Shown: piece after piece, positions 6,701-55,159 of the stretch
How the letters are laid out: the number at the start of each line of letters is the position of its first letter
How positions within the stretch are numbered: the first letter of the stretch is position 1
DNA from: Onchidella celtica
Taxonomy: Eukaryota; Mollusca; Gastropoda; Systellommatophora; Onchidiidae
Assembly: GCA_963931925.1 (NCBI GenBank)
Contig: OZ007581.1
Location: 22,378,947 to 22,442,946 of the forward strand
Reading direction: 5' to 3'
DNA length: 64,000 bases
The notes under the pieces: model-generated
The model's input: the letters and a program-made list of their open reading frames with translations, nothing else
Told to the model about the DNA's origin: nothing
Databases searched by the model: none
Translations under genes and position numbers: made by a program

Positions 6701-9700
6701 AAGACATTGTCATTTACTTATCAGGAATGTAAACTTGCTGATTTTCATCGGGTTTGTTATTCTTTTGGCTTTAGTATCCCAAGCATCTTTTTCCAAGTGT
6801 ATACTGATCTGGTTCACTGTAGCCCTGTTGGGCAACAGATATGCATCTGTGTAATATCCTTCAAGATTTTCTAACATTTTTCTGAAAGGTCGCTTACATT
6901 TCCAAATAATTCAGTAACCAGTAATTTTCTTTTGAATCAAATCCAGTCTATCATTTCCTTTTTTAAGCATGACAATCATGTACAGTATACAGATAAGTTG
7001 CCCAAATGTTTATATTTTGTGTCACATTTTTTTCAAATTATTACAGAGGTTGATATAGTATACCAATAATCTCTTTAAAAAAAAATTAATTGAAGCCATG
7101 CACCACAGACTGAAGATACTACTAGTAAGCATTCTTCATCCTGTTTAAAAATGAAAACAATTTCTTCTGCTGTTTAATATCTGCATCATAGCTGTGTAAG
7201 GTGATTATGAAGTATACATGTCTAGGAGCATTTGCTTATCTTTGACCTTTCGCTGGGAAGAGAAGATTGTTGATCTGTGGAACATAATATATTAGAAATG
7301 AATACAGCAATAATTTATCCTTAATTAATTCAAAATTTTGTTGAATTTTTGTTGTAGTATCCAAATGCAAATGCTGGCTTCACGCGCACGAAAGCAAATG
7401 ATCGAGGACATTTGCTTCCAAATGTTCCACGAGAGAGAACCTCACCTTGGGGCACATATGTTGGAACTTGGGATATGCCCTTGAAGATTCCAGGTCTGCA
7501 TAAAAACAGTATTATAAAGTTAATATCATTAGCTCTGATAGATGAAATAGTTTGATCATTTATTTCATAGGAGGGGGATAAAATTTATTAGTTTCCAAAG
7601 CTTCACTGCAGAATAATCCTCAGCCAGGTCTGATTATAATGACCGCTGAAAATCACAATGTTTTGTTTTTCTTACAAATCCCAAGGAAAGCTTTATAATG
7701 ATATACTTTCTGTTTGCATTATAAAGAGCAAATTAAAAATTACCAGTACATGTATAGGCCTAGCCAGTATTTTCAAATTAATTAAGTTTCATTACTGTTA
7801 ATGCCTGATTTGTGAAGTTGTTAAATCCCTTGGTAGAAAAAATACTAAATACATGCAAGAATGATTTATCAACAGTGTAATTTATCACATGGGAAAAGTT
7901 GATTTTATTTCTTGAACAGATTCCAGGAAGTCATAATGTGTTTCATTTGTGTGTGGGACAAGCAGACATAGATTTTTGAGATATTTAATTTAGATACCAT
8001 ACAGGGCATTTATCTTTTGTTATAAGATCTGAGTGGTGCAGCATGATGCACTTGCAATATTCTCAAGGCAACAGATTTCAATTTGTTGTAGACTGCAGCT
8101 GTAAATTATACAGATTTTCTCCTTCAGGTAACAGCGTTTTGAATCCCACGGCCAGATCAGAAAATGCTGTGCTCAAAGGCCAGAAAGTGAAGGAGAAGGG
8201 TGATGTTGTTCTCAGTGGTGCACTTAAGAGATGCCATGTGAGTCAGAGTTGTATTCACAATTGTGTTTTTTTGTTGTTGTTTTTTTTTAAGGTTCCCAAT
8301 TGTGTTATTTAACTTTTATGCCTTTAGACTTTTCCCTTGTTTAAACCTTTCCCAACTGCCTGCATCTGTGTTTTACCTTTTGCTACGTGAAAGACAACCC
8401 CTGATATCCTTTTATCCTTGTTTTGGTAATCTTTTAGTTGCAAAAGACATTAATACCAATTACATTTTCTGAAACCTTGTTCATATGATTAAATCAGAAC
8501 TAATATTGTTAGTATTGTCCTCCTTGTTAAAAACGCTTCTCTCTATCAAAAGCTATAATTTCTTTGAAATACCTCCAAATTGCACGTATGCAGCAAATGC
8601 TGTGGCCTCCTGCCCCATGTGGACAAGGAATTAACTGTTCCAGCTTTTCATGTCACTTGAACAGTTGAAGGTTAATTCAGTGGCTCATTTAACTGATGAC
8701 AATCCGCGCCATTTTTTTTTTTTCAGTAATTGTGATGTTAGGTGAATGGCAGATTGCAGGAAAATTATCACAGTGTTTATAAGAACTGTGAAAACAACAT
8801 GTATTCCTATCTGGATCTAGCAGCAATAGCAAGTAGATTCAATGCAGTGGAGCTTGACATCATATTTATACCATAATATATTTAACTCCTGCAGAAAATT
8901 GGAGAGCATGGAATCCTATAAGCTCTTAGAAAATGATGCCAATCTAAGTCCTTATGGTGGACTGTAGGATGATTGACCAGCAATGATACACAGTTTTCTT
9001 TTTTCCAGACTGTTGATCCACTGCCTGTGAAAATGGATGCTCCTGAAGATCAACGCCCAGTTGGTATGATTTGTGAGCCAGCTGGTGGCATTACTGGTGA
9101 TGCCACATGTGTCCAGCCATGCCCACAGGTGGAGACAACTCATTACGATGCCAACCAGGCAAGGGCAATGTCCAGGAAGGAAAGCAGAGAAGGCCTCAGT
9201 TGGCCCAAAGTACGTTATCGCTTTTTCTATCTAGTAAGAATGGCTATGGGAGAGTAAAGGGATGCTGTACGTGTTTTTATTTTCCATGTTACTACGTCGG
9301 GTTATTGCACTGTGTAATTTCATGAAAAAGTACATCGCAAAATCATTTCTGTTTGGGCACTACAGTTCTGGAAAATTATCCATTTTTCCAACTTTCCATG
9401 CCACTTTGACAGTCCTCTTTCATTGACTCAATATTGTTAGACCTGAATAAAAAAAATGCAAGAGGCACATTTTAGACAATACATGTATTTATATTGAATT
9501 TTACAGGCCAAAAGCCCAGCTTGTAAGTCTCCAGTGGGACATGCTCAGTCACCCAAGCCTGTAACACCTATGTGTGTTGCTGATGTCAACATTCAGGAAA
9601 ATGCCAGACAGTGTGTATCACCTTTAGCCCCTAAAGCCGACAAAGTACAATGTGGAGGTCTAAATACCCCTGATGCAGATCCCCAGAGGAGGGCTGATCA

Positions 9701-9800
9701 GCCACCTAGTCCTCAAAACAGGATTGTTGGAATGAAGAGTCCAACTGCAGTTCCTCAAGATGGATCAAACCCACATGCAGAAGCAGCTCTGGTTTCTTAA
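3798..9800 (+). CDS. CFAP126: Flattop / cilia- and flagella-associated protein 126
   Basis: Six exons join in phase: 3798-3824, 4206-4271, 7358-7493, 8128-8237, 9009-9209 and 9507-9800 (stop included). They give 278 codons, 277 residues, and every intron is GT-AG. The N-terminus MSINFHANQYEQAY and the core NDRGHLLPNVPR...PWGTYVGTWDMPLKIPG are the signature of Flattop, which in vertebrates acts at basal bodies and in axonemal/planar-polarity positioning of cilia. The mammalian protein is about 180 residues; this one is longer because of a Ser/Pro-rich, low-complexity C-terminal half from exons 4-6. The start is the first ATG before the conserved NYSANQYE-like motif, 5 bp after AAATG context AAA. 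A candidate X-box lies upstream. Part of exon 5 has been copied into a hairpin element downstream. The identity is strong; exon boundaries are by eye. Confidence 0.9.
4272..7357 (+). other. CFAP126 intron 2, no gene recognised
   Basis: A 3.1-kb AT-rich intron. Open stretches at 4938-5219 and 5222-5611 have no splice support or recognisable protein and were not called. No terminal repeats were found. Confidence 0.6.
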
Positions 9801-10567: not shown

Positions 10568-10573
10568 AATAAA
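10568..10573 (+). terminator. CFAP126 poly(A) signal
   Basis: AATAAA lies 768 bp after the stop codon, in AT-rich sequence on the gene strand. It is the first canonical signal after the stop, implying a 3' UTR of roughly 0.8 kb. Confidence 0.55.
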
Positions 10574-12229: not shown

Positions 12230-12658
12230 AAAAAAAAAAAAAAGCAGTGGCGGGAATATTCACTGGTATAATTTTCGCCTTGGACTTACAGCTTGAATGA
12301 CAGTTTCAAAAATTACAGTCAACTTTTCTTATGTGTCAATTAATCCAGCCCAGTCGCTTTTGTATCGACCGATTGTGTTGATTCAAGTTTCAGGTATTTT
12401 TAAATAAAAAGTTGTAAAAATGTAAAATACAATGATCTTTGTTTTGGCTCCCTATGTAAGTCCACGGCACGGAAACGTTGTAGGTCTATTAATACGCATT
12501 TAATTCGGGGCACGCAGTTTCCCCACCAGAGATGAGTGCATAGTGCTTTGGTGAGCACGAAATCTGTAGTAAAACTAAAATATGGTAAGCTTTCTAGACC
12601 AAAGAGAGAATGGTGGATTCACAGTTTTATCCCGGAAAATGCCGGGAACCTCATCTAG
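12230..12658 (+). mobile_element. Helitron-like element, family A, copy 1
   Basis: This copy aligns over about 400 bp with 54540-55002. It ends with a hairpin (CCCGG at 12631-12635 pairing CCGGG at 12642-12646), eight bases, then CTAG followed by T. A 3' hairpin about ten bases before CTRR with T as next base is the Helitron 3' terminus. No Rep/helicase sequence is present, so it would be non-autonomous. The 5' TC end was not located; the start given is where similarity to copy 2 begins. Confidence 0.6.
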
Positions 12659-12862
12659 TGTTATCTATTCACGAAATATCATAAAAACCACAGAAAATCT
12701 GTGGGGTCGCAGCAGGGCTATAAGCAAAGTCAAAATTGGGCAAAAAGAAAAGGTTGTATGTTGCAATAAAAGACTTCAACAGGAATAAAGTGAAACAGTT
12801 TACTTAGTTGCGAGTTCTTGCTTCGTTAGCAGCACCAAAGCACGTCCGTCCGCCAAAAGCAT

Positions 12863-12989
12863 GATCCACTGCCTGTGAAAATGGATGCTCCTGAAGATCA
12901 ATGCCCAGTTGGTATGATTTGTGAGCCAGCTGGTGGCATTACTGGTGATGCCACATGTGTCCAGCCATGCCCACAGGTGGAGACAACTC
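12863..12989 (+). pseudogene. captured copy of CFAP126 exon 5 (127 bp)
   Basis: These 127 bases match 9015-9141, inside exon 5 of CFAP126, at 126 positions; the one change is C to T at the Arg codon of DQRPVG, which becomes Cys. The copy starts six bases inside the exon and stops before its end, so no intron boundary is present and RNA- or DNA-level copying cannot be told apart. It lies in the same orientation as its source, at the loop of the inverted repeat, and keeps an open frame (MDAPEDQCPVGMICEPAGG). It is a gene fragment and not a gene. Confidence 0.9.
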
Positions 12990-13032
12990 TCGAGCTTCCA
13001 TGCTTTTGGCGGACGGACGTGCTTTGGTGCTG

Positions 13033-13073
13033 CCATAGATTTACTACACTAGATTAGTGTAGTAAATCTATGG
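13033..13073. mobile_element. 41-bp near-perfect palindrome with 6-bp direct repeats
   Basis: Two 19-bp arms flank a 3-base loop (GAT). The palindrome is bordered by GTGCTG at 13027-13032 and 13074-13079. The corresponding left arm of the host hairpin has a single uninterrupted GTGCTG complement, so this is an insertion that duplicated six bases. It looks like a minimal fold-back insert. Confidence 0.75.
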
Positions 13074-13779
13074 GTGCTGCTAACGAAGCAAGAACTCGCA
13101 GCTAAGTAAACTGTTTCACTTCATTCCTGTTGAAGTCTTTTATTGTTCGTTTTTTTTTTTTCACTTGAAAGAGGCGAAAGCCGAAAATTTTGTGTATTTT
13201 CTGTCTTCTCTTTAGTTTGCTTTGTATTGTTTGGGTTTTATTTCTCACGCGGGGTTTTGCAACATACAACCTTTTCTTTTTGCCCAATTTTGGCTAGTGT
13301 TATCTATGTTAATAAAAGTGAAACTTTACGGCAATTGCAGCGCGCCTTTCGCTACTCCTCTGGTTAATGCTGATTCGGTGGCCCTCAGATTTTATACACC
13401 GCTTAATATAGACTGTCGACGTGTCGCCGGCACAGAAAATAAAAAAAATAATGAATAACTCATAGAACGTTTGTATTAGTTCCTATGTTGCGACACATTG
13501 GCGTTCGATCTATTTTTTTGGGGAAATGTAATTGTGATTGGTTCAGTATCGGTATCACTCTCACAAATTGCGCATTCGATTACAATATCACAAGCACAAA
13601 TTGCAGTCGCCGATAGTGCTGAATCGTCTTGGCTTGGCCCCTCATATTCCACGTTTAATCATAGATACATGCAAATACTCAAATCTAATTATCTACGCGC
13701 ATTGTAGCTTTAAAAATGCATCTTTTATTATAAAAGTGAACTTTGGAGGCTATGTTAGTCTATTCCTCCGTTAATACTT

Positions 13780-16704: not shown

Positions 16705-19700
16705 TCACAAAACACGATTTTGTACAAAAGAGAGGTTGGCATAATAGGATGCATCGAAAGATTCAGTGCCCAGATATTCATCCCTGGTCCTGTTGAAAAT
16801 CATTTCTTCAAGACATCCGATGACGACCCGGTCCTTTGACAGGTAAAATTTGTTGGCAAAATAATGTTTGGCCACGCCAAGAAGCGGTAAGTCACCTGGG
16901 GAGAGAGAAAATGAGTTGGATTTTGACGGATGTTTTCTTGGTACATGTATGAATCAATTCAGTTCTACAAGTTCAATGATTTTATCAAACGAAGCAATTT
17001 GAATGGAAGAGAGAGAGAGAGAGAACTACCAGCGGCCATCATACTGACCATTGCCCACAAGGGTTAGATATCACTGATACTGATATTCTTTGCCAGCACA
17101 GCAGTCTTGGGTCTGATTTTGTGTTAGGTCTTTAGGCCTATTTTAGGAGCTTTGCTGCCATTGGCATTTACCCCTCAAATTTTCTTTTCCCCGTCGGCTT
17201 CTATAGGATACTGAAGAATGACGTACTGATATAGACACTACTTACAGCCTTAAAATGGGAAGGATGAAGCTATTACTGTAGATGGTAGTTTTCTACTACT
17301 GAGCCTGTTGCAGGCACATTTGTACGTTTGCTTGTCGATGCGCATTTTCCGCCTCAATTCTTAAGTTAGCCCTAACTCAAAGATCAGATGTATGTGACTT
17401 GGAAAACATCGAAGGCATTTACACTCGAAATTTACACTCATGAGGGGCACCATCTTGAACAGGAAGTGGTCGCGGCAAATAATATTGTACATATCATATT
17501 GTTTGGACTCATTAAAAAAATGACAGGCCTGTTCATTGATAGTAATATCAATGTATTTCGCTCTAAGAACTGGTCGGGGCAAGATACATACATACATACG
17601 TTATGACACTTAAGTTCTAGAGGTGTGTCTGTTTGTCTCCAGTTACGTGTAGGTATTCTGGTACTTTTTATAGCACTTTAAAAAAAAAAAGCTTATTTTA
17701 TGAAAATGAAAAGTTCCGTGCAAATGACCCCACTTGCTTTATATCAATGAAACAGAATTCTAGAGACATGCATTCAAGGTATTCCACCTACCTGTACTCA
17801 GGATGCAAATCCCTCTAACGAATCTACGACCAGCACAAGGGTTGTCTCCCCAGTTTTTATAGCGAGTGAGAAAAGGTTTGTCAGGTCCAGTCTCGGGTTC
17901 TCCTGTGAATGAACACAAAATCTGTCATATTAAAATTCCATAATATATATAAATCTGAAACATAAATAAATGACAGGCACGCCTAGACGAAGCAGTGCTC
18001 GTCTCGACCTTGTGAAATTTGACTCATGGCTTTGGTGTTGTTGTTCTTGTTGTTTTGTCTTTGGCTTTTCTTCATGTAAAAGAACGGGGCGGGGGGGGGG
18101 GGAAGCTGTTTGTATCGTAAATAAAGAGCTTAGACGGGCAGAAATCCACTAAGCTTATTAACCCTCTAAAATTAATATTCTCCATCGCTACATATAGACT
18201 ATGCCATACGAAAATAAAGAAGTGCCAAAAACTTCACAAATCTTCGTCAATTTTTTTTTTTTTTTTGGCATACATGGGGAGGGCCTCCCATAAGCCCAAC
18301 CCTGGGTCCTCGTCCCGGGAGGTGGAAACAGGACAAAGTAGGGGATTGCTGGGTTTGGGCGAAGTACGGTGTGACCTTGTGTCACTTAGGCGCTACGCTA
18401 GCCGTGAAGGCCATCCCGGGTCACCCCGAAACGTCGCTGGCTAACAGGGCTCTGGTGAAATCCTGGCAGCAGGGGATGGATGAGGACGGAAGGCGACCGA
18501 AGGATCTTTGGGCACGGCTTTTGTCTCTCGTGGTTGCGGGCAGAGGATTCCGTTTTTGAAACAATGGCCGGGACCAATGCACAGTATGTGCACTGCGCTT
18601 TCAGAAAGCAATGGCAGACCACTGGAAGAATTTCTTGCCAAAAACTACAATGAAATGTCACACAAAAGGAAAGAAAGTTATAGTTCTGTGTCCTCTGAGT
18701 CCCCCAGGGAGGGTCGGGACTCAAAAACGACTGGGGAAGGAGAATCCACAACTGCAGAAGGCACCCGTGATGACGATACTGGCGTATCTGACGGTGAGTG
18801 CAAGAAACAGAGGTGTAGATACTCCTATTCAAAGAAAAGAAAAAGCAAAAGTGTCATCAACATCGGCACCTGGAATGTTAGGACCATGAAACAAATGGGA
18901 AAACTTACACTTCTGTTAGAGGAGCTGAAGGAACTCAGCATGAACATCACTGGACTGAGTGAAGTACGATGGGACAAACAGGGCCTATTCAGGACAGAAG
19001 ATCACACCATCGTATACAGCGGAAACAAACGCGGCATGAATGGTGTTGCAATTATACTGGACAGACGCTTACGAGACAACATTAGCAGCCATGACGCTAT
19101 AAGTGATAGAATTGCCACTGTGAAACTTGACACCCAACCCGTGCCCCTGAACATCATACAAGTATACGCCCCCACATCTGCGAGCACAGAAGAAGAAATA
19201 GAGCTGTTCTATAATGACCTACAATCAGTAACAGACAAAATCCCAAGCAGAGAAATATGCATAATCATGGGAGATTTCAATGCCAAAGTGGGAGAGGGTG
19301 AGGATCTGGAATGTGGGATAGGACCCTATGGATTAGGAGAACGAAACGACCGAGGAGACATGTTAGCATCTTTCTGCCATGCAAATGAAATGAGCATCAC
19401 GAACACCCGATGCGAAGAAGATACACATGGATAAACCCTGGAGGCAATCTCCGAAACCAGATTGATTACATCCTGATTGACAAAAACTGGAAAACAACTG
19501 TGCCCAACTCAAAGACAAGGCCAGGGGCAGACTGTGACACTGACCACATTTTAGTGACAGCAAAGCTGAGATTGAAAGCCTATAGGAAGAGCAAGCCAAA
19601 ACCCACCACCAGATTTGACACGGACAAACTGAAAGACCCTGAAATCAGCAATGCTTTTCAGATCGAAACAGAAAACCGTTTCTCAGCATTACTCAAGGAG

Positions 19701-22700
19701 TGGTCAGCTGAAGAAAGACACCCAGATACACTGTGGAAAGACATGAAAAGAATTTGGAGTGAAACAGCTGAATCGAAACTCGGGAAAAGAACGAGGAAAA
19801 CTCCCAAACCATACATCAGTGAAGAAGTGATAGAGCTTGCAATAAGAAAGAGCAAAGCCAGAAAACTTAGTAAACAAGATGAATATCATGCACTGAAGAA
19901 GGAAATCCAAACAAAGATCAGAAGAGATAAGAATGCATGGTTAGAAAGAGAGTGTGCAAACATAACAGAATGTAATACACAAAGAAAGTCAAAAGAAATG
20001 TTTGAACAAATAAGAAAAGTAAAAAAGAGGGATTTCCAACCACAGAACTTGAGTCTGAACAACAAGGAAGGCACAACATTAACAAACACAAAAGATGTGC
20101 TCTCAAGATGGCACGAATACGGCAAGATGCTGTTTGCGGACAACATCAGACCAGACCCGAGGGACCTCCAACAACCAGACTCACAACAGATAGATAAAGA
20201 ACCAGAACCTCTCTTGGAGGAAGTACAGGCTGCAATAAAACAAATAAAGAATGGAAAATCCCCTGGATTAGACAACATACCAGGTGAACTCCTGAAACAT
20301 ACCAGCGAATCAGGAATAAAAGCACTCCACCAAATGATCTGCAAAATTTGGCAGACAAATGAATGGCCAACAGACTGGAAGCTACAAGAATTCGTCATGC
20401 TATACAAAAGCGGCAATGTCAAAGACTGTGGAAATTATAGAACCATCGCCCTCATCAGTCACACCAGCAAAATCCTGCTCATCATCATACTCAACAGAAT
20501 GAAATCTAAGGTAGAAGAGGAACTATCAGAATGTCAAGCTGGTTACAGGACCAACAGAGGAACCGCTGACATGCTCTTCATACTACAAATAATGATTGAA
20601 CAGATAAGAAGCAATGGAAACGAAGTGTTCATCACGTTCATAGACTAAAGCAAAGCGTTCGACAGCGTTAGGCACCATCACCTGTTCGATATAATGATTA
20701 AGATGGGATTCCCGAAACACCTTGTGACCCTCATCGCTGCACTATACCACGAACAAAAGGCAACGATTAGATGGAACAATGAGAACTGTCCATATTTCAA
20801 CATCGAGAAAGGAGCCAGACAGGGTTGCATACTTTCACCTCATCTTTTCAATATTTATACTGAGCAGATCATGAGAAACGCAGACATAGAAGATATGGGA
20901 ATAAAGATCGGAGGCCGAAACATCACAAACCTTCGCTACGCTGATGACACAGCTCTTATGTCAGATAACATCACCAGCATGAAAAGAGTGTTGCACAGAG
21001 TGGATGAAGCGGGCAAGACAGCAGGCCTACACCTAAATGCTAAGAAAACGAAAGTCATGCATACTGGAACAGGGCACCATGAACACCAGGAGATACTAGT
21101 AAACAAAACAGCACTAGAAAAAGTGACTGATTTCAAATACCTAGGATCACATAAATCGCAAGATGGAAGCTGCTCAAAGGACATAAAAACAAGGATAGGA
21201 ATGGCAAAACACAAAATGGTTCAACTAAACAACATTTGGAAGGATAGAGGCACACCAACGGACCTCAAAGTGAACATACTTAAGTGCTTGATCTGGCCAG
21301 TCCTACTATATGGTTGTGAAGCCTGGACACTCAAAAAGGCAGACATAACAAGATTGGAGGCAGCTGAAATGTGGCTTTACAGAAGGCTACTCAGAGAGCT
21401 CCTCTTCGCAGATGATGCTGCAATCGTGGCCCACGATGAAACCACGCTCCAGGCTCTCATCAATAGCCTTGCCAAAGCCTGTGACAAATTCATGCTAAGG
21501 ATCAGTGTCTCAAAAACTGTAGTTTTGACACAAGGCTTGAGAAACCCCAACCCAATCATGCTGAATGGCTCTCCTCTGGAGCAAGTGGGAAAATTCTGCT
21601 ACCTAGGCTCAACCATCAGTGGTAGCACAGACATAACAACTGAAATAAATGCCAGAATAGGAAAGGCGGCCACAGCTTTTGGCAAACTCTCAAAAAGGGT
21701 GTGGAACAATAGCAAGCTGACCATCAAAACAAAGGTACTCGTGTACCAAACTTGCGTCCTAAGCACCCTGCTGTATGGCTCAGAGACATGGACCACCTAC
21801 TCCAAACATGAAAGATCCCTCAACTCCTTCCACCTGCGCTGCCTACGCAAAATTCTCAAGATCAAGTGGCAAGACAGGATCTCAAATATCGAAGTTCTGA
21901 GCCGAGCCAACATTCCATCAACTCAGGCTCTCCTAGGCAAAAAAAGACTGCGGTGGCTTGGACATCTCCACCGTATGGAAAATGATCGCATCCCCAGACA
22001 AATTCTCTACGGGGAACTTGCTACTGGCAACCGACCCAGAGGTAGGCCACATCTGCGATTCAAAGACACTTGCAAGGTCACGATGAAAGCATTCAACATC
22101 GACCCCAATGAATGGGAGAACCTTGCAAATGATCGAAGCAGATGGAGACAAAAATTGCGCAGTGGCACGCTCGCAATAGACTTCAAGGCAAAAGAAACAT
22201 ACCTGACAAAACGACAGAGGCGGAAGGAAAACACTCGCCAAAGTGAACCCAAAAGACTGACCTGCAATCACTGCCATCGCACTCTCGGGTCAAACATTGG
22301 TAGAATAAGCCACGAGAGAAGCTGTCAGTCAAAGTGAAAGTGAATATTCTAGCTGCTAAGACCGTCTGTAAAGACGCTAAAGGCCATATTATACTCAGAA
22401 TAAGTTGGACAGAAAGGAGAACAAATACAAGCATCTTAGAACAGCTTGGCACCACCAGAAGAATAACACCTGAAATAAATAAAAGAAGACTTGCATACAT
22501 CGGCCACGCGGCCCGAAACAAAAGCACGGCCCTTATGATATCAATCCTTCAAGGAAAGACAGAAACAAAGAGAAAACAAGGAAGACCACCCATTACATAT
22601 CACGATAACATCAAGAAAGTCAGCCAGCTGGAAATAAGTGAACTAACTAGGAAAGCTAAGGACAGAATTGGGTGGAGGAGATTTTGTCGTGACATCCACT

Positions 22701-36552: not shown

Positions 36553-39329
36553 ACCCGCACACTTAATGGGCTGTGGATCAGTATTCGAACATTGCAGATG
36601 AAGAGCTATTCACTTTCCAAATTGTGACATTCAGAATGGGTGATATTTGTTAGTTCCCAAAGATTTGTAGTTTATTGTAGCTTATTGAAGCATCTGCGTT
36701 TTCACGGTGCGGGAGACAGTGAGGCTAGAAGAAAGCTTGCCCCCTACCAGGGAAATTTTTGACTGATTCAATCAGAGTTGGCCATGCTTCCATATGACAG
36801 AACAGTTAAGCAGCTTGATAGTTTCGAAGCAGAGCGACGTATGTTTTTCAAGTGCAGATGCCATAAACTCGGCAAGTACAGAAGGAAATATATTCTTTTG
36901 TGACAGGTCGCTCATCTGCCGAGTAATATCCCATTATTTTAAAGCAAGGATCGGTCAGATGTTGAAGAGACAATAGATTGATCGTCAAGCCACAGGCTGC
37001 CACAAAGCAGTAGAGATGTATTTGACTTAAAGCAGAAGTACTATAGATATGACAATAACGTCATTACCGACGGACATAGTAAAATTCATAGAAAGCTGAA
37101 CATGCCCGATCACGATCTCCCTACTTGTAGGCTACCTTCAGGGTCCTATTAGACCATCACCATAACTTAGACCTACGCTGCGGCAGGGTTCTATGTGAGC
37201 CGATGATTGTGGTCGTGTCCTGCAAGACCCGATCGCCAAGTTAGGTAATTATTTTCATCACCACGGGTGGGCTAGGCAGATACATCGCTTCCGGTTCTAC
37301 CGATCCTTGACTTAGTAATAACAGTTGGGTTCTCGTCCACAGTAACTGCGGGTCCCGGTTACTTTATGGGTCCCGCCTCAGCTTACCTCAGACATGACTG
37401 TCGATTGAAACATAACTATGTATCCCGAGTATTACTATGAGGTAATACTGTAAATGACTGAGAGTTACCTGGAGTCCTGTAGTGTGATTATCTCTACACA
37501 TCCTCAAAGACAAAACTTCCGCAGTATCTTTCCTGGGATAAAGTTATCAGTCCTGGTGTCAGTAGGTTGACCTTGCATATGTTATCACACTGATAAACTT
37601 GATAAAATCTCAACAGCACTTATCACATAGTATCTAGTATCTTTGGTTGAAGATACGTGTCCAGCAAATTATTAGGTAAACAATGATGATAACACTATCC
37701 AGTGGAGACATCTTTATTTGGGGTGTGTGAAGCGGAGAAGTTTAACAACGAAATTTCCCGTTGAAGAATTGGAATTGCCGTATCTGGGCACAAAAAAAAA
37801 AAAAAAAAACTTGATACCTGCTACATTAAGTGTTCCTAACCCCACCATAAAGCATACATATAATTTCTTTATTACTTACGTGTAAGTGTCTGGAAAAAGG
37901 TTGCAGAGGATGAAAACTTGCGTATTTTCTGAATCCGTCTAAGTTTTTATGTAATGTCTAGTTTTCCATGACCACTCAAGAATAAGCACAATGATATATA
38001 ATTGTTTTTAGTTAGCAAAGCCACTGATATTATACATTGTTAAAGTATGCTTAAATAACATGAAAAGATTATCTAAAACAAAACAAAACAAAACCAAAAA
38101 AAACGAAAAAATCTGTGGGATGGCAGTCAAGGCTTGAGGTGAAGTTAGAATGCGGCAAAAAGAAAAAGTTGTATCTTCCAAAGCCTCGCATACGATATGA
38201 TACTAAAACGTAACAATAAAATGTGGGCATGAGGAAAAACAATCACTACATAATCAAGCTATTACAATATTATTATTAGACCGCCGATGAAAATGTGTAA
38301 TATTACTACAATATCAGTAAAATAATCAAAGAAAAAACATAAATAAAGAGTGGTTGAATATACCCTTGTAACGCAAGGAGATACTTCCAAAAGACAAATA
38401 TATAAATAAATAATATGACAATAATATAAAGTCACAATGGCATCTCAATCATCCTGTTACCATAACTAAAGTCGAACCTTCGCTTCATTTCATGTATAAA
38501 TCTGCTGGTTCAGCCTGTATCTTTTTGTTGAAACAATCAAACTTCTTGAATGGATTATGAACATGTATGGGTTCGTATGTCCATTGTTCATTGTGAAATT
38601 CTGTCCCAGGGAACTTCATTCTCATTCTTAAAAGTTACGAATTCAAGGGATCACATCCTTGTTCAGTTCTTGTGGTTGATATTAAAGAAATATATTTTTA
38701 TGCCTTCTTCCACGATGGTGACTTAAAATAACTAACAATTTAATCCAGACAAAGTGTTGAAATATCATCTTTTAAGCTAATAATGCAAATGACATGGTTC
38801 AGTCGTCAGAAATAATTCATGGCGAAAAAATATTGAAATGTCCTTTCGTAGGGCTTACCTTAAAACTTGGCGTAGTTTATGAAGTCTTTGGTTTGCCCAA
38901 GTTATCCCATGTATCACTGAGAGAGGAACATAATCAGACCTCCTATAAGGTAGGGAATCTTCACCATCACTATCTATGAATTAGGCTCGGTTACTCTGAT
39001 AACAAACTATTTGGGTAAGTGAAGTGTCGTCTCATCTGTTTGTTTAATGCTATCAGTATCAGCAGCCTAGATGCGGTACAGGTATTTACACAGATGCCCA
39101 CTAGGTTAGATCGATCTGAACAAATGCTGAGGACAGGTTTGGCTAAGCTGTGGTAGACAGCCGTCGGTTGGCCGCTAGCGGTGGAGATCGCCTGAGGAGG
39201 AGGACGAGCCCTGTGCCAATTGCGACGCGCCTGCGCTGTCCCCGACCTCGACACTGCGACCAAATTTCATTTGACATACATGCAAAACCTAGTGACTGTG
39301 ATCGTCTTAAAAAATAATTAGGATCTTCC
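36553..39329. other. intergenic, mostly featureless
   Basis: No gene supported. 38109-38180 resembles the left flank and outer arm of the hairpin element at 12690-12765 (AAATCTGTGGG, then GGCAAAAAGAAAAAGTTGTAT), so it may be a fragment of the same family. An A-run lies at about 37792-37809. Confidence 0.4.
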
Positions 39330-54539: not shown

Positions 54540-55002
54540 GCACATCTTATTATAAAAAAAAATAGTGGAGGGAGTAATTCATTGTCGTGCAATTTCGCCC
54601 CTTTTTTTGCTCGACTCTACGGCCTAAATGACAGTTTCAAAAACTATAAAATTAATTTTCTTAACTGTCAACTAATCCAGTCCAATCGCTTTTGTATCAA
54701 CCGATTATGGTGATTCAAGTTTCAGGTATTTTTAAATAAAAAGTCATAAAAAAGTAAAATACAATGATCTTTGTTTTGGCTCCCTGTAGTAAACCCGCCG
54801 CACCGGAAACGATGTATTAATACGCGTTCAATTAAGTGCGCGCAATTTCCCTATCAGAAATGAGTGCGTAGTGCCCTGGAGCGCATGGAGTCTGTTGTAA
54901 GACCAGAGAATATCGAAAGCTTTCTAGACCAAAAAGAGAGAGAGAGAGATAGAACGCTGGTTTCACAGGTTTATCGCGGATAATGCCGGGAACTTCATCT
55001 AG
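54540..55002 (+). mobile_element. Helitron-like element, family A, copy 2
   Basis: Aligns with 12230-12658 across most of its length (for example TTTCAGGTATTTTTAAATAA and TTTGTTTTGGCTCCCT). It ends GCCGGGAACTTCATCTAG followed by T; the first hairpin arm is mutated (CGCGG). A (GA)n tract is inserted near 54940. Non-coding. Confidence 0.6.
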
Positions 55003-55159
55003 TTGTTTCAAAGAAATTAAAGACAAGAGGCAGACTGACTATACAAGTCCATTAAAGACTGTTGCTTTGGTGTGATTGGGGCGACATGCCGATTGGAACG
55101 GTTCCAAAGATTATTTCTGCACATCTGTTGTTGTCAGTGATATAAAATAACTCTAAAAT

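What the first reader, a model, noticed from the sequence alone, without database searches (positions are those of the whole stretch)
12669..13293. A mobile hairpin has captured a piece of the neighbouring ciliary gene CFAP126
A 127-bp segment of CFAP126 exon 5 (9015-9141) reappears at 12863-12989 with one base change, framed by 100-bp inverted arms and further 35-bp outer arms. Gene-fragment capture between inverted repeats is known from plant Pack-MULEs and similar elements, but a large, very recent example beside its animal source gene is unusual. Transcription would give a hairpin with the exon in its loop, or antisense RNA from readthrough on the other strand, so a regulatory effect on CFAP126 is conceivable.
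Basis: partly seen in the sequence, partly recalled or inferred. Interest (0 to 1): 0.85.

Follow-up and report, generated by a model that had tools for sequence, protein, structure and literature searches.

The report
Penelope element holding neighbour-gene exon piece
A common retrotransposon of the Penelope kind inserted near the cilia gene CFAP126 and, where its two inverted halves meet, carries a 126-base copy of part of one of that gene's exons; this looks like a one-off copying accident, useful mainly as a clue to how these elements insert.

Summary
CFAP126 exon 5 (9014-9141) recurs at 12862-12989 with one change (C9054/T12902), between inverted arms. A genome search finds only these two places, so nothing shows that the exon was spread by transposition.

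The arms are not a foldback or Pack-MULE transposon. They are the terminal repeat of a high-copy Penelope-like retroelement (PLE): in other copies the same sequence follows coding sequence with GIY-YIG and reverse-transcriptase matches. The insertion, 12668-13295, is flanked by a 14-bp target-site duplication. Its left end starts at terminal-repeat position 1, the right end at 61: the two ends that define the PLE 'tail'. Of 36 double-ended copies among 90 sampled, 35 have this one-of-each arrangement. A purified PLE protein extends both cut strands from two start sites in vitro (PMC11167929).

Both arms stop at positions 312 and 321, beside a common stop of the family (322-325), and the exon lies exactly between. 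Best reading: template switching to a nearby CFAP126 template, RNA or DNA, filled the junction during insertion. Later gap filling of a broken hairpin is the main rival. A 39-bp palindrome with an 8-bp duplication entered the right arm later. No sign of a regulatory role.

The parts
9009..9209 (+). CFAP126 exon 5 (source; copied part 9014-9141)
   Evidence: Open frame 8973-9254 with acceptor TTTTTTCCAG before 9009 and donor GTACGT after 9209; Flattop match of an upstream exon; exon boundaries are my reading of splice signals, no RNA evidence
9507..9800 (+). last coding exon of CFAP126, stop codon 9798-9800; polyadenylation-like signals follow at 10568, 10641, 11761, 11776, 11984 and 12403
   Evidence: inference from sequence
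12655..12668 (+). left target-site duplication CTAGTGTTATCTAT
   Evidence: 14-bp exact direct repeat with 13294-13307; 28 copies listed (this one included) have 9-15 bp repeats at the same place
12668..12863 (-). left arm: PLE terminal repeat, family positions U1-99 then U213-312 (internal deletion with CAA microhomology); E1 end, includes the 'tail' U1-58. PLE sense is on the - strand
12862..12989 (+). copy of part of CFAP126 exon 5 (9014-9141), same orientation as the gene, one change (C9054 to T12902)
   Evidence: second of two places found in the genome
12990..13033 (+). right arm, inner part: family positions U321-278 (PLE sense on + strand)
13034..13072 (.). 39-bp palindrome CATAG...CTATG flanked by an 8-bp duplication GGTGCTGC (13026-13033, 13073-13080): tiny transposon-like insert placed after the PLE
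   Evidence: 3 of 39 positions differ from its own reverse complement, in the centre; one other genomic place with 2 mismatches, C1:66377353 (up to 3 mismatches allowed)
13073..13295 (+). right arm, outer part: family positions U285-61; E2 end, no tail
13294..13307 (+). right target-site duplication CTAGTGTTATCTAT

Best explanation
This is one insertion of a host Penelope-like retroelement. SHOWN from sequence: the arms are the terminal repeat that lies downstream of coding sequence with GIY-YIG and RT matches in other copies; 14-bp target-site duplication; one end starts at position 1 (E1, with tail) and the other at 61 (E2), as in 35 of 36 double-ended copies; both arms stop at 312 and 321, next to a common stop of the family at 322-325; the CFAP126 piece fills exactly that junction, with a 2-nt overlap on the left and none on the right. 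INFERRED: the element's nuclease cut both strands 14 nt apart; each 3' end primed reverse transcription of PLE RNA at one of two start sites; both cDNAs ran almost to the 5' end of a short PLE RNA; one of them then switched template to CFAP126 exon 5 in the immediate neighbourhood, and the ends were joined. The right-hand cDNA grows leftward as the minus strand, so the exon in gene sense fits copying of a sense CFAP126 transcript, but a DNA template is not excluded. Later the 39-bp palindrome inserted into the right arm. I expect no function for the exon copy.
For: PLE identity: GIY-YIG (PF01541, E = 9.5e-05 in L047 and 6.1e-05 in L046, above cut-off) and RVT_1 (E = 2.6e-06 in L059, 27.7 bits against a cut-off of 29.6), all just upstream, in sense, of the same terminal repeat. 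Structure: 36 double-ended copies among 90 loci, 35 of type E1/E2 and 1 E2/E2 (the rearranged L032), against 29 E1 and 18 E2 among 47 single-ended and 7 unclassified; chance of 35 or more mixed of 36 is 8e-11 if ends paired freely at the single-copy frequencies. TSDs of 9-15 bp in 28 copies picked for clean repeats. Common stop: 16 of the 20 loci end at U322-325. Template switching in this family: L094 holds between its two arms 126 bp of another repeat (603 candidates; 40 scored places exact over 93 bp, L094's own among them), entered at the (TTATC)n tail where L096 and L097 stop being alike, in the direction in which a cDNA would copy that RNA. The left arm of the window copy has an internal jump U99 to U213. 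Precedents: both-strand extension and two internal start sites in a PLE protein (PMC11167929); host DNA between PLE terminal repeats in Adineta vaga (PMC3846280); template jumping by the R2 RT (PMC8857657, outline and abstract seen).
Against: The source lies 3.7-3.8 kb away; a random genomic source within 4 kb has a chance near 7e-06, so a freely diffusing mRNA is a poor donor, and the first CFAP126 polyadenylation-like signals (10568, 10641) are 2 kb short of the insertion, though later ones reach 12403. Proximity fits DNA repair as well or better. Nothing in the exon piece marks it as RNA: no splice junction and no poly(A). The nearly equal arms would by themselves form a fragile palindrome where later gap filling could occur. 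RVT_1 is slightly below Pfam's cut-off and was not found in L048's 433-aa ORF. Seven of 90 loci start at neither E1 nor E2, and the bins are broad (U1-14, U46-67), so L022 (U14/U46) is a loose fit. Many copies run past U325, among them most that picked for holding U330-412.
Confidence: 0.6

Rival explanations
1. Same PLE insertion, but the exon came later: the nearly perfect palindrome broke at its centre and the gap was filled by DNA template switching (FoSTeS/MMBIR-like repair) from sequence 3.7-3.8 kb away on the same chromosome.
For: Source in cis, same orientation, 3.7-3.8 kb away; the exon sits at the palindrome centre; 2-nt microhomology on one side. In animal Pack-TIRs 160 of 281 lie within 15 kb of the source, the majority of these within 5 kb, with median microhomology 2 bp (PMC8277862 section 8). 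L032 also carries a 151-bp, 98% copy of sequence about 0.2 kb away.
Against: In L032 the local copy joins the element at U47, not at a palindrome centre, so that capture fits insertion-time switching better. The exon lies where PLE cDNAs commonly end anyway.
Confidence: 0.3
2. Pack-MULE-like or foldback DNA transposon that captured an exon and could move it.
For: Inverted arms, internal gene fragment, flanking direct repeat.
Against: TSDs of 9-15 bp rather than a fixed length; outer ends at two alternative places and variable inner truncation; copies with a start site at one end only (47 of 90); the arms are the terminal repeat of an element with RT and GIY-YIG matches; the exon-bearing form was found once.
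Confidence: 0.02
3. Assembly artefact: exon sequence misplaced into a repeat.
For: High-copy repeat next to the gene; reads not available.
Against: Copy differs from the source by one base; clean TSD; typical PLE anatomy around it; a second, later insert with its own 8-bp duplication in one arm.
Confidence: 0.04
4. The hairpin has become a regulator of CFAP126 by small RNAs or antisense RNA.
For: Near-identity of 126 bp to exon 5; inverted arms could form a hairpin if transcribed.
Against: The exon is in the loop, not in the double-stranded arms; both arms lack the probable start base U324 and would transcribe outward. No RNA data and no test for selection.
Confidence: 0.03

Closest known systems
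Penelope retrotransposons of Adineta vaga (Arkhipova et al. 2013, PMC3846280; parts 1-3 of 5 read)
   Same: Inverted terminal repeats (pLTRs), optional 31-bp tail on one of them, target-site duplication, host DNA captured between terminal repeats, microhomology-made junctions
   Different: There a whole intron-bearing gene and unique spacers of 0.9-1.5 kb are reported; here a 126-bp exon piece from a gene 3.7-3.8 kb away, in a copy without element coding sequence
Poseidon/PAc of Anolis (Frangieh et al. 2024, PMC11167929; parts 1-2 of 4 read)
   Same: Extension of both cut strands and two adjacent internal RT start sites that define the tail
   Different: In vitro no difference in start site between strands was seen; the genome here shows one start site per end in 35 of 36 double-ended copies, and a tail of about 58 nt
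L1 twin priming and L1/snRNA chimeras (PMC2912911, PMC4476161; 12 passages of each seen)
   Same: Inverted segments with TSDs; template switching onto foreign RNA during insertion
   Different: In L1 twin priming the second end anneals internally on the RNA; here both ends use fixed start sites, and the donor is the neighbouring gene
Animal Pack-TIRs (PMC8277862; passages and section 8 seen)
   Same: Single-copy capture of nearby sequence inside an inverted-repeat element, microhomology at one junction
   Different: Those are DNA transposons; this is a retroelement

Membership tests
Penelope-like element (PLE) | Reverse transcriptase encoded by the element | tested here: inconclusive
   RVT_1 E = 2.6e-06 in L059, 27.7 bits, just under the cut-off 29.6; none in the 433-aa ORF of L048. 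Motifs AMGTKMGPSYACLF and YIDDGFG called PLE-like from recall
Penelope-like element (PLE) | GIY-YIG endonuclease encoded by the element | tested here: met
   PF01541 above cut-off in L047 and L046, upstream of the terminal repeat. That RT and GIY-YIG share one ORF rests on reading L048's 433-aa ORF (GIY-YIG there only E = 0.16)
Penelope-like element (PLE) | Terminal repeats, often inverted, with an optional tail on one of the two | tested here: met
   36 of 90 loci double-ended; 35 of 36 with the tail at one end only; tail about 58 nt, longer than the 30-40 bp reported
Penelope-like element (PLE) | Variable target-site duplications and 5' truncation | tested here: met
Penelope-like element (PLE) | Hammerhead ribozyme in the terminal repeat (common, not treated as required) | tested here: not met
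   No Rfam hammerhead at E up to 5 in window 12300-13700 or up to 2 in ten loci
Penelope-like element (PLE) | RT phylogeny inside PLEs | not tested
   No tree was built
Pack-MULE / TIR DNA transposon | Fixed-length TSD and fixed terminal inverted repeats recognised by a transposase | tested here: not met
   TSD 9-15 bp, two alternative end points, copies with a start site at one end only
Pack-MULE / TIR DNA transposon | Element carrying a gene fragment between its arms | tested here: met

The most novel reading that the evidence does not exclude
Penelope insertion complexes use one RNA with a fixed division of labour (one cut strand starts at the distal site, the other at the proximal site), and when a cDNA runs off the RNA's 5' end it readily copies whatever transcript or DNA lies beside the insertion, so PLEs duplicate bits of neighbouring genes in place.
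Probability: 0.3. Interest if true: 0.6.

Novelty: new member of a known kind. Interest (0 to 1): 0.38.

Why it matters
How Penelope elements insert, and how they pick up host DNA, is largely open (PMC11167929 says that steps after first-strand synthesis are yet to be validated). A high-copy family with young copies shows the two start sites, one per end, in 35 of 36 double-ended insertions, and gives three captures to study. For the gene itself it most likely means nothing: a small non-functional copy downstream.

Tried and rejected
Foldback/Pack-MULE DNA transposon: rejected by TSD lengths, alternative ends and the PLE coding sequence. tRNA-derived SINE: no tRNA in 12300-13700. LINE with poly(A) tail: no recurrent A tail at the outer ends in the flanks printed for 39 loci. 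Hammerhead ribozyme as cause of the U324 stop: no Rfam match; instead TCACTTC at U324 with GGACGTG 29 nt downstream resembles an initiator plus downstream promoter element (recalled), so U324 is probably a transcription start. Nine loci showed a gap over 100 bp between element pieces: L001 (window), L094 and L032 are taken as captures; L059's 131 bp is more PLE ORF; L061's 338 bp repeats about 10 positions of the body reference and is read as a later insertion; L007, L034, L075 and L081 were not examined in detail and are read as neighbouring older pieces or weak hits. An apparent terminal inverted repeat in my first working unit (from L019) turned out to be the usual E1 end. Not settled: whether the 151-bp sequence duplicated in L032 is a dispersed repeat (no other hit in the 323 kb held; genome search unanswered), and the flanks of the second 39-bp palindrome (fetch unanswered). 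Copies: best-scoring ones only;'s 40 places 12 came as loci and 20 more were fetched (8 not, one of them L019's site);'s 40 places 6 were already held and 20 were fetched (14 not). Frequencies are therefore not genome-wide rates.

Full report
What is there. The window holds CFAP126 (Flattop): the translated exon in 7358-7552 matches PDB chains named Flattop, best E = 4e-17, and exon 5 (about 9009-9209) and the last coding exon (9507-9800) follow on the same strand. At 12862-12989 a 128-bp stretch equals 9014-9141 except C9054/T12902, a CpG-to-TpG change; the first two bases are shared with the element arm. A genome search with window 12864-12998 gives two places only, the exon and the copy.

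What the arms are. A search with 12669-13293 gave 2994 candidates, of which 40 were scored and matched. With later searches I held 90 distinct insertion loci including the window's own. Left out before counting: L005 and L053 (near-duplicates of L004 and L045), the exon loci L009 and L010, the mitochondrial L011, and L096-L097. Copies are pieces of one unit (U) with two preferred outer ends, binned as U1-14 (E1) and U46-67 (E2), and variable inner ends. In longer copies the same sequence lies just downstream of coding sequence with a GIY-YIG domain (L046, L047: PF01541 above cut-off) and an RT domain (L059: RVT_1, E = 2.6e-06, just under the cut-off). The 433-aa ORF of L048, which by eye carries both motifs, gave no Pfam family at E up to 0.01 and GIY-YIG only at E = 0.16. 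RT plus GIY-YIG in one element with such ends is the mark of Penelope-like elements (PMC3846280, parts 1-3 of 5; PMC11167929, parts 1-2 of 4).

How it inserted. By script, 36 of 90 loci are double-ended (inverted segments with a start site at both outer ends); 35 are E1/E2 and one E2/E2 (L032, visibly rearranged); 47 have one start site (29 E1, 18 E2); 7 have neither. If ends paired freely at the single-copy frequencies, 35 or more mixed of 36 has probability 8e-11. Direct repeats of 9-15 bp flank 28 copies that I picked for clean repeats: 27 of the 36, plus L017, whose second arm is too short for the script. The nine not on that list have best direct repeats of 4-10 bp (L007, L015, L019, L022, L032, L045, L059, L089, L094). 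In the 28, the base after the duplication is G in 20 and the base before it is C in 12, a hint that the two cut sites are alike, as one nuclease cutting both strands would give. An Anolis PLE protein cleaves and extends both strands and starts at two internal sites whose distance is the tail (PMC11167929). The window copy is a plain case: TSD 14 bp, left end U1, right end U61.

Where the exon sits. Among arms that reach U312 in the loci, 23 of 28 stop at U312-324 and 5 go further (U332-412); in the 20 loci, 16 stop at U322-325, nine of them exactly at U324, and 4 go further. The query forced the latter to reach U320, so only the upper limit is informative; the loci were picked for holding U330-412 and mostly run through. 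U324 is the A of TCACTTC, with GGACGTG 29 nt downstream; by recall this looks like an initiator and a downstream promoter element, hence probably the 5' end of a short RNA. The window's arms stop at U312 and U321 and the exon fills the space between. The left arm has a further jump from U99 to U213 at a CAA microhomology. So the exon stands where two cDNAs commonly end.

Other captures. By inspection of gaps, three of the 90 loci hold more than 100 bp of non-element DNA that seems to belong to the insertion: the window, L094 and L032; six other loci with such gaps are dealt with under what was rejected. L094 has 126 bp of another repeat (603 candidates; 40 scored places exact over 93 bp, its own among them). 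Two other copies, L096 and L097, are alike up to a (TTATC)n tail and differ beyond it; L094 enters the repeat at that tail, in the direction in which a cDNA would copy it. That is good evidence that template jumping onto RNA happens in this family. L032 has a 151-bp copy, 98% identical to sequence about 0.2 kb away, joined to U47 of an E1 end; it has no other hit in the 323 kb held, but the genome search for it did not complete, and the locus is rearranged. So two of three captures look local.

RNA or DNA donor. The exon is copied in gene sense. A right-hand cDNA (minus strand, growing leftward) that switched to a sense CFAP126 transcript would give exactly this; so would DNA templates. No splice junction, no tail. 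Animal Pack-TIRs show the same local bias and are explained by DNA gap filling (PMC8277862, section 8). I put 0.6 on capture during insertion and 0.3 on later gap filling.

Age and later events. The two arms differ at 2 of 133 aligned sites, and exon and copy at 1 of 126, so all are young and of similar age; numbers are too small for a date. A 39-bp palindrome at 13034-13072 sits between two copies of GGTGCTGC, so it entered the right arm after the PLE; one other place in the genome matches it with 2 mismatches in the centre.

Function. The exon is in the loop, not in the arms; the right arm reads outward from U321 and the left from U312, both short of the probable start at U324. I see no basis for a regulatory role, but no RNA data were available.

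Host. The mitochondrial contig C43 is 13,988 bp and its COX1 match contains 5 TGA; AGA/AGG stand where serine is expected. I take it, from recall, for a heterobranch gastropod; the species was not identified.

Literature. Searches listed no title or abstract start about a PLE carrying a piece of the adjacent gene; the nearest is A. vaga, where host DNA between PLE repeats is described. Most subscription papers are not in that library.

Noticed in passing
13034-13072: A 39-bp near-perfect palindrome (CATAG...CTATG) flanked by an 8-bp duplication; only one other genomic place within 3 mismatches, C1:66377353-66377391, with a different centre.
   Followed up: partly
90 loci, e.g. L002, L040, L088: 35 of 36 double-ended PLE copies start once at U1-14 and once at U46-67, none twice at U1-14: a near-strict one-of-each rule for the two ends.
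   Followed up: yes
28 copies: G follows the target-site duplication in 20 of 28 and C precedes it in 12 of 28, a possible shared preference of the two cut sites.
   Followed up: partly
U324 of the family; cut off in the window at 12863 and 12990: Twelve arms end exactly at U324 = A of TCACTTC with GGACGTG 29 nt further on: probable transcription start inside the terminal repeat.
   Followed up: partly
L094:741-866: PLE copy with the (TTATC)n-tailed end of another repeat between its arms, entered at the tail.
   Followed up: partly
L032:1225-1674: Rearranged PLE copy with a 151-bp local duplication and an 11-bp flank sequence (ATTCAGTTAAA) present in inverted orientation on the two sides.
   Followed up: partly
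18484-20648: ORFs with Exo_endo_phos (E = 2.6e-09) and RVT_1 (E = 7.7e-05) matches: probably a non-LTR retrotransposon in the same window.
   Followed up: no
12236-12659 and 54554-55003: The insertion lies beside an older repeat, 77% alike between the two places.
   Followed up: no
38108-38189: Old relative of the PLE terminal repeat, 77% identical to U27-107.
   Followed up: no
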